Shown piece after piece: positions 27,511 to 30,912 of a stretch of 33,437 nt of DNA. Made by a program: the position numbers and the translations under genes. Position 1 is the stretch's first letter. Each line of letters begins with the position of its first letter. Location: the NCBI GenBank assembly GCA_014377385.1, contig JACMPR010000040.1, forward strand, positions 1 through 33,437, written 5' to 3'. The notes beneath the pieces were generated by a model that was given only the letters and a program-made list of their open reading frames with translations, was not told where the DNA came from and searched no databases. This stretch comes from Ferruginibacter sp. Its GTDB lineage: Bacteria > Bacteroidota > Bacteroidia > Chitinophagales > Chitinophagaceae.

Positions 27511-30500
27511 TCACTTTTGCAGGAAACGTTTGCTTATCTCATTATATAGCTGCAAATATTCATTTGCTTTTCCGTTCCCGTCAAAAATTCTTTCCCAGGT
27601 ATTTAATGGTTCCCAGATACAACTGCCTTTTCCCCTTCCCCCCGCTACATTAAACGCAAGTTCATTCACTTCTTTTTTTAAATGTGAATATTCAACCACA
27701 ATTACATCCTTGTTATACCTGCGGGACAGGTCATCCAGGTTATAATCGAGATCAGCCAATGTATTGTGCCATTTTGGATAATAGGATAAACCAATTACAT
27801 CAAATTGAATACCCCGGATGATCATATTGTCGATGAAGAAACGGCTTTCGTCATTTTGGCCACCTAACGCGATATGCAGCATGATGGCTGTTTCGGGCGC
27901 CACCGCTTTCACGCCATTGATGCCGGCATAAATCAATTGTGCAAGGCTGTCGAGGTTATTGATTTCTCCATGTGGCCAAATTATCCCATGATTGAGCTCG
28001 TTGCCCACCTGTACCATTGCCGGCGTGGTGTTTTGATCTTTCAAAGATTGCATTACCATTTTCGTATAGTCATACACCGCCTGTTTTAATGCAGTGATAG
28101 ATTTTCCACGCCAGGCCAGCGGCATGTATTGTTTTTGCGGGTCGGCCCAATAATCACTGTAATGGAAATCCAATAAGAGTTTCATCCCGGCAGCTTTCAC
28201 TCTTTTCGCCATTTGTTTTGTATGTTCCAGGTCACAATATCCTTTCTTAGGTGAATAACCGCTGTCGCTTGCAGGATCATTAAAAATGCGCAGCCGCACA
28301 TAATTCATCCCATGTTCGTTTAAGATTTTAATGGCATCCTTTTCCTGCCCATCCGTATCGTAAAATTTCATTCCCCTGGCTTCCAGTTCCGGAAGAAATG
28401 AAATATCCGCCCCCAACATTTTATCTACCGGGGAAGCTGCGAATGGCAGAACCGGAAAAGTATTTTGGGATTTGCTTACGCTGTGTGGCATTGCAGGCTG
28501 GATGGTAATGATATCTGTTTCGCCTTTATACAGGCTATCCGCAGCTGCTTCAAAATGAATCATGGATCTTGTATTTCCGGATTGAATGATGACCTGGCAT
28601 TTACCGTTGAATAAACGCCTTTGGGCAACGGTGTCAAAATATTTATCTACCTCGTGGCTACTCGGATCGCCATTTCCCACACCAATTATTTTTGCATCGC
28701 CGCGTAGAGAGAATCTAACAAGCTGTGCTGCATCTGGTATCTCCCGGCCTTCTTTATCTATCACCGTTATATTGATGACCGTAGCATCTTTTCCATCAGC
28801 CAACATGGTTGTTTTGTAAGGACTGATCACCAGCTCAGCAGGCTGGCCGGTTGTTTCAATTTTTGAAGTGAGTTTTTTACCTTTCTTGTAAGCAATTGCT
28901 TCCAGGTTGCCCGGCGCATAATTTACAAGCCATTGCAGGTGGCCATTTCGTGGCATTTTTTTCTTTCCCAAACTTTTAGAATTTAAGAAAAGCTCCACAT
29001 CATCGGCATTGCTGTTTACCCAAACATCAATTGGTTCTCCTTCCTTGCCTTTCCAATTCCAATGGGGAGAAATATGCAGTACATCCTTATCTGTCCACCA
29101 GGATTGATAATAATAATAAATATTTTTAGGAAAGCCACAAACATCCATTATCCCAAAATGAGAATTAATATTTGGCCATTGGAACGGCGTAGGTTCACCT
29201 CTGTAGTCGAGTCCTGTCCATACAAATCCACCCAGCCAAAAATCATTTGCTGCTGCAAGTTTCCACCAGGTTTCCGCTGTACTTGCCCACCATGGTGCGG
29301 TAATATCCTGGTCGGGAAGATAACATCTGATCGAGTCTTTCGTATATTGGCCACGGGTGGTTACGGTACTGCCCATTTCTGTTCCCAGCAAGGGTTGCAG
29401 GGGATGATCGCGGTGGTAATCCGCTACTGCGAATTGCCTGTAATTAAAACTTCTTACCGGGACTACCTCGTTGATTCCTTTAAATTCATTACCCATATCT
29501 GCAGCATAAGTACTGGCTCTTGTAGGATCCAGCTGCGCTTGTTTTGCAAGTAGTGAAGTTGCGATTCTTTTTCCAAAACTGTTGCCTTGTACATATCCTT
29601 CCTCATTTCCGAGTGACCACATAAAAACGCATGCCCTGCTTCTGTCGCGTTTTATCAGCCATTCAAAATCCTTCATATACTGCTGGCTGCTGTTGAGCAA
29701 CCTGTTTTCATCCATTACCAGCAAACCGAGGCTGTCGCAAGCGTCCAGTAACTCAGGAGTTGGCGGGTTGTGACTGGTTCGATACGCATTGGAACCCATT
29801 TGCTTCAACAGGAATACCCGGTAATACTGCAGGTAATCGGGCAATGCACTTCCTACGCCGGCGTGATCCTGGTGGTTATTTGTGCCTTTGATCTTTACAT
29901 ATTTTCCGTTTAAAAATAATCCTTTGTTTGTTATGGTAATGGTGCGAATTCCAAAGCGAATTTTCTCCGTGTCGATTACTTTACCCGCCATTTTTACAAT
30001 GGGAATCACCCGGTAGAGGTATGGATCTTCCAACGACCACAAACGAGGTAGCGTAACCGTTAGTCTCTGTTTAATTTCCTTTTTTTCGTTGATGTTGAGC
30101 GAAATATTTTGTTCCGCAGTTTGCCCAATGAGTTTGCCATCCCTGTCAGTTACCATTGCATGGAATGTTATTTTTGATGCGGTAAGGCTTTCATTTTCTA
30201 CGGATGCTTCAATATTAACTGTCGCATTGTTTCCCTGTGCAGTTGTATAAATAAATACCGGGTTTTCCGAAAGATGAACTTTATTGTATTGATTAAGCCA
30301 TACATGACGATAAATTCCCGCGCCTTCGTAAAACCAGCCTTCATATTGCGTTGCATCAACTCTTACAACAATTACATTTTCTTTGTCATAGTTAAGGTAG
30401 TTGCTGATGTCGTATGATGCACCAACATAACCACTTTTATTATTGCCCAGGTAAAAGCCGTTTAACCAGAAATGCGCATCTCTAAAAACGCCGTCAAACT

Positions 30501-30912
30501 GGAGTTGCTGTCGTTGATTAGAATCTGTGGCGGATACTTTAAAATGTTTCCGGTACCAGCCGACACTTGTTCCAGGATAAGCGCCGCCTATCGGCTTGTA
30601 GCCGTGTGATTGTACATCAAAATTGGAGGAATTTACAAATGGAAGTTCAACTGCCCAGTCGTGTGGGAGGGAAAGCGAACGCCAGGAACTGTCATTGAAT
30701 TTTGAATCTATTGCAGTAGTTGGTGCCGCACCTGTTTTGGCAAATATAGTGGCAAGGCTGTAATTAAAATCTTTCGCCGGGTCGTTGGCATTCCCGAATG
30801 AGAATTTCCAATCTGCATCAAAATTTATTTTTTTGCGGGATTGGGTAAAGCCTTTGATGGTGCTTAAAGTGATGAGGCTGATCAAAAAACAAAGCAGCGG
30901 TATTCGTTTCAT
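27511..30912 (-). CDS. Bimodular GH2 beta-galactosidase-like / GH53 endo-beta-1,4-galactanase fusion
   Basis: Signal peptide; GH2 motifs KIKGTNNHQDHAGVGSALPDYLQYYRV, FMWSLGNEEGYV, PLLGTEMGS; C-terminal GH53 module from about MLGADISFLPELEARG (~28420) with LLLDFHYSDYWADP, MVQVGNELNHGIIWP, VIVVEYSH. Confidence 0.92.
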   Translation of the reverse strand: MKRIPLLCFLISLITLSTIKGFTQSRKKINFDADWKFSFGNANDPAKDFNYSLATIFAKTGAAPTTAIDSKFNDSSWRSLSLPHDWAVELPFVNSSNFDVQSHGYKPIGGAYPGTSVGWYRKHFKVSATDSNQRQQLQFDGVFRDAHFWLNGFYLGNNKSGYVGASYDISNYLNYDKENVIVVRVDATQYEGWFYEGAGIYRHVWLNQYNKVHLSENPVFIYTTAQGNNATVNIEASVENESLTASKITFHAMVTDRDGKLIGQTAEQNISLNINEKKEIKQRLTVTLPRLWSLEDPYLYRVIPIVKMAGKVIDTEKIRFGIRTITITNKGLFLNGKYVKIKGTNNHQDHAGVGSALPDYLQYYRVFLLKQMGSNAYRTSHNPPTPELLDACDSLGLLVMDENRLLNSSQQYMKDFEWLIKRDRSRACVFMWSLGNEEGYVQGNSFGKRIATSLLAKQAQLDPTRASTYAADMGNEFKGINEVVPVRSFNYRQFAVADYHRDHPLQPLLGTEMGSTVTTRGQYTKDSIRCYLPDQDITAPWWASTAETWWKLAAANDFWLGGFVWTGLDYRGEPTPFQWPNINSHFGIMDVCGFPKNIYYYYQSWWTDKDVLHISPHWNWKGKEGEPIDVWVNSNADDVELFLNSKSLGKKKMPRNGHLQWLVNYAPGNLEAIAYKKGKKLTSKIETTGQPAELVISPYKTTMLADGKDATVINITVIDKEGREIPDAAQLVRFSLRGDAKIIGVGNGDPSSHEVDKYFDTVAQRRLFNGKCQVIIQSGNTRSMIHFEAAADSLYKGETDIITIQPAMPHSVSKSQNTFPVLPFAASPVDKMLGADISFLPELEARGMKFYDTDGQEKDAIKILNEHGMNYVRLRIFNDPASDSGYSPKKGYCDLEHTKQMAKRVKAAGMKLLLDFHYSDYWADPQKQYMPLAWRGKSITALKQAVYDYTKMVMQSLKDQNTTPAMVQVGNELNHGIIWPHGEINNLDSLAQLIYAGINGVKAVAPETAIMLHIALGGQNDESRFFIDNMIIRGIQFDVIGLSYYPKWHNTLADLDYNLDDLSRRYNKDVIVVEYSHLKKEVNELAFNVAGGRGKGSCIWEPLNTWERIFDGNGKANEYLQLYNEISKRFLQK

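What the first reader, a model, noticed from the sequence alone, without database searches (positions are those of the whole stretch)
27511..30912. GH2-GH53 fusion: a predicted single polypeptide with exo-beta-galactosidase and endo-galactanase modules
The 1133-aa ORF carries a GH2-type module (acid/base in SLGNEEG, nucleophile candidate in GTEMGS) and a full GH53 module with both expected glutamates (QVGNELN, VIVVEYSH). Both modules appear catalytically intact. The arrangement could couple endo-cleavage of beta-1,4-galactan to galactose release. Family and motif knowledge is established; the rarity of this fusion is my inference.
Basis: partly seen in the sequence, partly recalled or inferred. 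Interest (0 to 1): 0.72.

Follow-up and report, generated by a model that had tools for sequence, protein, structure and literature searches.

The report
Two-in-one pectic galactan-degrading enzyme
One bacterial gene encodes a single secreted protein that joins two plant-galactan enzymes, an internal-chain cutter and a galactose-releasing enzyme; the joined form is not rare but a conserved, apparently unstudied enzyme type shared by many Bacteroidota.

Summary
The 1133-aa ORF at 27511-30912 (minus strand) is one uninterrupted reading frame with a complete GH2 beta-galactosidase (NCBIfam GalA, above its curated cut-off) and a GH53 endo-beta-1,4-galactanase module (Pfam 6e-93). All four catalytic glutamates (E437, E512, E972, E1074) sit where clan GH-A expects them and are conserved in 97 distinct fusions (one unreadable residue at E512). 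It is not a misassembly. The rarity claim fails: full-length fusions occur in 18 of 93 genomes of the genus, about 70 of 397 of the family (Chitinophagaceae), and in several other Bacteroidota families. The gene lies in a six-gene galactan-to-galactose cluster: LacI regulator, lipoprotein GH53, GH2-GH53, galactokinase, sodium symporter, aldose epimerase. Likely role: periplasmic conversion of galacto-oligosaccharides to galactose after a surface GH53 has cut the polymer. No paper on a GH2-GH53 protein was found in the library searched. Activity is untested.

The parts
27511..30912 (-). GH2-GH53 bicatalytic protein, 1133 aa
   Evidence: single uninterrupted ORF, homologues of the same length in >100 loci
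30841..30912 (-). predicted N-terminal signal peptide (about residues 1-24), no lipobox; periplasmic/secreted
   Evidence: sequence MKRIPLLCFLISLITLSTIKGFTQS; 85 of 97 homologues score as SP-like without a lipobox by a simple rule; no SignalP available
28522..30822 (-). GH2 GalA-type exo-beta-galactosidase module, residues 31-797
   Evidence: NF041462 GalA 1041.6 bits > cut-off 900; Pfam domains
29602..29604 (-). GH2 acid/base glutamate E437
   Evidence: aligned with GH2 structures; E in 97/97 homologues
29377..29379 (-). GH2 nucleophile glutamate E512
   Evidence: E in 96/97, one unreadable residue
28417..28521 (-). linker, residues 798-832; nearly constant length in most homologues, among the less conserved inner stretches
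27514..28416 (-). GH53 endo-beta-1,4-galactanase module, residues 833-1133
   Evidence: PF07745 6.1e-93; nearest solved structure 7osk 4.3e-62
27997..27999 (-). GH53 acid/base glutamate E972
   Evidence: 97/97
27691..27693 (-). GH53 nucleophile glutamate E1074
   Evidence: 97/97
31047..32096 (-). separate GH53 galactanase, 349 aa, probable surface lipoprotein (Cys followed by Lys-Lys)
   Evidence: PF07745 2.2e-96; nearest structure 6gp5, 5.7e-88
32107..33201 (-). LacI-family regulator; the HTH begins at residue 26-27, so the true start is probably an internal ATG near 33138
26276..27436 (-). galactokinase
   Evidence: TIGR00131 370.9 bits > 226.65
24387..26075 (-). sodium:solute symporter (SSF), probable galactose importer
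   Evidence: PF00474 3.4e-56; TIGR00813 above cut-off
23203..24237 (-). aldose 1-epimerase (galM-like)
   Evidence: PF01263 1.1e-88; NF008277 above cut-off
23109..23126 (.). terminator-like hairpin between the end of the cluster and the convergent brxC-like gene
   Evidence: consensus match only

Best explanation
This is a bicatalytic galactan-processing enzyme of Bacteroidota. A surface lipoprotein GH53 (31047-32096) cuts beta-1,4-galactan of pectin outside the cell. The oligosaccharides reach the periplasm, where the GH2-GH53 fusion acts: its GH53 module shortens longer oligosaccharides and its GH2 module removes galactose from their non-reducing ends. The SSF symporter brings galactose across the inner membrane, and GalM and GalK feed it into galactose catabolism; the LacI-type protein regulates the cluster. 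Shown: domain content, conserved catalytic residues, conserved fusion, gene order. Inferred: location of each enzyme, substrate, division of labour, regulation and any kinetic benefit of the fusion.
For: Curated models for both modules. Catalytic E437, E512, E972 and E1074 conserved in 97 non-redundant homologues, with one X at E512, and placed at beta4/beta7 of two predicted barrels in a model with pLDDT 84.3 and pTM 0.85. Nearest folds are beta-galactosidases 7cwd, 4ypj and 5t99. The same six-gene order LacI-GH53-fusion-GalK-SSF-GalM occurs in relative G031. In other lineages the fusion often sits with SusC/SusD: 30 of 52 loci with enough flank. N-termini differ: plain signal peptide on the fusion, Cys-led lipoprotein type on the separate GH53. 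The studied B. thetaiotaomicron galactan locus BT4667-BT4673 uses a surface GH53 and a periplasmic GH2 as separate proteins (PMC8002723; PMC5238430).
Against: No activity data. No SusC/SusD pair lies beside the cluster in this genus, and the contig ends at 33437, so the import route across the outer membrane is unknown. Locations rest on signal sequences read by eye and a simple rule. GH2 is polyspecific; a GalA name does not prove beta-1,4-galactan as the substrate.
Confidence: 0.8

Rival explanations
1. The fusion is a surface or secreted enzyme that degrades the polymer itself, with endo and exo steps coupled outside the cell.
For: The GH53 module is an endo-type family; this genus lacks a neighbouring SusC/SusD pair, so full breakdown outside and uptake of galactose by the symporter would be simple.
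Against: The fusion has a plain signal peptide and ends with the GH53 barrel, with no lipobox or T9SS sorting domain, whereas the separate GH53 has lipoprotein features.
Confidence: 0.13
2. The fused GH53 module is no longer an endo-hydrolase but serves mainly as a galactan-binding or product-positioning module for GH2.
For: It has a shortened beta7-beta8 segment: 29 residues against 36-58 in other GH53s.
Against: Both catalytic glutamates and their motifs are conserved in 97/97 homologues, which a mere binding module would not need.
Confidence: 0.06
3. The ORF is an assembly or sequencing artefact joining two neighbouring genes.
For: In Novosphingobium plasmids the two genes are separate and overlapping neighbours, so a single indel could mimic a fusion.
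Against: More than 100 loci, from many independent assemblies, carry the same fusion with similar linker length.
Confidence: 0.01

Closest known systems
Bacteroides thetaiotaomicron galactan locus BT4667-BT4673 (GH53 BT4668, GH2 BT4667)
   Same: Same two enzyme activities expected, one locus, surface GH53 plus periplasmic GH2 (PMC8002723, PMC5238430)
   Different: There the two enzymes are separate proteins with SusC/SusD/SGBP and an HTCS regulator. Here the GH2 is fused to a second GH53 of another clade, the regulator is LacI-type, and SusC/SusD is not adjacent in this genus
GalA beta-galactosidase family (NCBIfam NF041462)
   Same: GH2 half passes the curated cut-off over the full model
   Different: Stand-alone GalA proteins of about 800-830 aa lack the GH53 half
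GH53 endo-beta-1,4-galactanases with solved structures: 7osk (nearest), 1r8l, 6gp5
   Same: Fold, catalytic glutamates and surrounding motifs
   Different: Separate clade (98/99 support) with a 29-residue nucleophile-to-WEP segment
GalB-like GH2 fused to BT4668-like GH53 in genome G811 (locus L151)
   Same: Same module order GH2-GH53, same kind of galactan locus with a lipoprotein-like GH53 and SusD/SusC
   Different: Both halves come from other subfamilies: an independent fusion

Membership tests
GH2 / GalA (NF041462) | full-length match above curated cut-off | tested here: met
   1041.6 bits vs 900, residues 32-799
GH2 / GalA (NF041462) | acid/base and nucleophile glutamates on beta4 and beta7 | tested here: met
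   E437 and E512
GH2 / GalA (NF041462) | beta-galactosidase activity | not testable with these tools
   needs purified protein
GH53 (PF07745) | match above gathering score | tested here: met
   311.9 bits vs 24
GH53 (PF07745) | catalytic glutamates on beta4 and beta7 | tested here: met
   E972 and E1074, 97/97
GH53 (PF07745) | match over the whole profile, including the last third | tested here: inconclusive
   Pfam match ends at 246/340; beta7-beta8 segment shortened, but the eighth strand is predicted
GH53 (PF07745) | endo-beta-1,4-galactanase activity | not testable with these tools
   needs purified protein
Canonical SusC/SusD polysaccharide utilization locus | adjacent SusC/SusD pair | tested here: not met
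   none in the window (contig ends at 33437); none adjacent in four same-genus relatives; present near the fusion in 30/52 loci of a wider set
Galactan catabolic gene cluster | galactanase plus galactosidase plus galactose import and Leloir-entry genes on one strand | tested here: met
   same order in L168

The most novel reading that the evidence does not exclude
GH2-GH53 proteins are an undescribed class of bicatalytic galactan enzyme, formed at least twice independently. In the main class the fused GH53 has been reshaped (short beta7-beta8 segment, fixed 29 residues) into an oligosaccharide-processing form whose short products are handed to the joined GH2 active site.
Probability: 0.3. Interest if true: 0.5.

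Novelty: new variant of a known kind. Interest (0 to 1): 0.34.

Why it matters
It gives a defined, widely conserved natural example in which an endo- and an exo-acting enzyme on the same polysaccharide share one chain, beside a separate endo enzyme of the same family. That makes a direct test possible of whether tethering helps, because unfused relatives, a fission-like remnant and an independent second fusion all exist. It could also serve as a tool for converting pectic galactan to galactose.

Tried and rejected
Misassembly or frameshift: rejected by more than 100 fusion loci. Rarity: rejected. Origin of the fused GH53 by recent duplication of the neighbouring GH53: rejected, the two are in deeply separate clades. 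Single origin of all GH2-GH53 proteins: rejected by L151. Whether the present GalA-only relatives are ancestral or lost the GH53 half is unsettled: several fall among fused proteins in the GH2 tree, but many forks there are weak. Paper searches for a GH2-GH53 or bifunctional galactanase-galactosidase gave nothing relevant. CAZy, dbCAN and UniProt could not be queried. Sigma-70 promoter scan: no excess over shuffles. No Rfam or tRNA match in the window.

Full report
WHAT IS THERE. The ORF at 27511-30912 is read on the minus strand and encodes 1133 aa. Pfam places a complete GH2 set (sugar-binding 31-207, immunoglobulin-like 219-323, TIM barrel 325-517, DUF4982 625-680, C5 694-797) followed by GH53 at 833-1077. 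NCBIfam calls the first half beta-galactosidase GalA with 1041.6 bits, above the 900-bit cut-off. Solved relatives are GH2 beta-galactosidases (7cwd, 5t98) for the first half and GH53 galactanases (7osk, 1r8l) for the second.

CATALYSIS. E437 and E512 (GH2) and E972 and E1074 (GH53) align with the catalytic positions of those enzymes (which residues are catalytic is family knowledge). In an alignment of 97 non-redundant fusions they are unchanged, except one X at E512. An AlphaFold2 model from 48 sequences (mean pLDDT 84.3, pTM 0.85) has two barrels with these residues after beta4 and on beta7. Its best PDB matches are GH2 beta-galactosidases, with TM-scores by target of about 0.85-0.89 for the top single-module entries. 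Parts of the GH2 active-site face (515-535, 581-597) have low confidence. The high pTM suggests, but does not prove, a fixed arrangement of the two modules.

NOT RARE. The fusion is full-length in 18 of 93 genomes of the genus (one match stops at residue 1028) and, by my count of the listed rows, in about 70 of 397 genomes of the family. All 80 best loci in a collection of named genomes carry it, including Flavisolibacter, Segetibacter, Lacibacter, Longitalea, Hydrotalea, Puia and Pinibacter, and outside that group Pedobacter, Arcicella, Flectobacillus and Chryseotalea. In a phylum-wide sample of 396 genomes the listed full-length GalA-type cases all belong to the window's own family, so it is concentrated there. 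A same-genus relative at 79% identity is recorded as a Ferruginibacter MAG (L049), so the window is probably from Ferruginibacter or a close genus.

NEIGHBOURHOOD. Six genes run in one direction: LacI-type regulator, separate GH53, the fusion, galactokinase, SSF symporter, aldose epimerase, ending at a terminator-like hairpin at 23109-23126. The same six genes in the same order occur in relative G031 (L168). The genus lacks an adjacent SusC/SusD pair in four relatives examined, while 30 of 52 loci with enough flanking sequence in a wider set have one within reach. The own genome, about 84% complete, shows GH53 only at these two genes and eight SusD-type matches elsewhere. The separate GH53 is closest to 6gp5 and looks like a lipoprotein; the fusion has a plain signal peptide. 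The contrast recurs across loci, although the rule used is simple and scored only part of the separate GH53s as lipoproteins; the rest were judged by eye.

HOW IT WORKS. In B. thetaiotaomicron, BT4668 (GH53) cuts galactan to oligosaccharides and BT4667 (GH2) finishes them in the periplasm (PMC8002723); BT4668 is extracellular (PMC5238430). By analogy, the lipoprotein GH53 here opens the polymer and the fusion completes hydrolysis to galactose in the periplasm. The location and division of labour are inferred.

TWO FURTHER FINDINGS. First, the fused GH53 modules form one clade (98/99 support, with three unfused relatives inside) far from the neighbouring GH53s. Every member that the measurement could read has 29 residues from nucleophile to the WEP motif, against 36-58 in other GH53s examined. 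The AlphaFold2 model shows helix 7 of this barrel as short, 1079-1087. This may change which oligosaccharides are made; that is an inference. Second, genome G811 (locus L151) has a separate GH2-GH53 fusion of 1157 aa. Its GH2 is GalB-like (873 bits, just under the GalB cut-off of 900; GalA 668), its GH53 is BT4668-like (299.5 bits to 6gp5 against 151.6 to 7osk; I take 6gp5 to be the B. thetaiotaomicron enzyme from memory), and it lies beside a lipoprotein-like GH53, SusD and SusC. Trees of both halves put it outside the main class. The fusion therefore arose at least twice. Related arrangements exist: separate but overlapping galA and GH53 genes on Novosphingobium plasmids, GalA-only relatives beside a separate GH53, and a GH2-C5 plus GH53 remnant without the GH2 barrel in G574.

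VERDICT. A real, intact and conserved bicatalytic enzyme in a familiar pathway. The parts and pathway are known; the joined form appears undescribed in the papers I could search, but CAZy could not be checked and may list it. Interest is modest.

Noticed in passing
L151:5399-8872 (genome G811): Independent GH2-GH53 fusion with a GalB-like GH2 and a BT4668-like GH53, in a SusC/SusD galactan locus.
   Followed up: partly
L153:7604-9040 (genome G574): Protein of 478 aa with only the GH2 C-terminal domain joined to the GH53 module; looks like a fusion that lost its GH2 catalytic part.
   Followed up: partly
L138:4705-7950 (genome G069): GalA-type GH2 preceded in the same ORF by what looks like an SGNH/GDSL-type esterase domain, a different fusion partner; judged by eye from the translation only.
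   Followed up: no
window 13362-14726 (-): HTTM plus vitamin K-dependent gamma-carboxylase lumenal domain protein (PF05090, PF22777), a bacterial relative of the animal carboxylase.
   Followed up: no
window 2842-8571 (-): 1909-aa subtilase with MBG repeats and a type IX secretion sorting domain.
   Followed up: no
window 857-2794 (-): TPR-repeat adenylate/guanylate cyclase; a cyclic-nucleotide-binding protein lies at 11731-12171.
   Followed up: no
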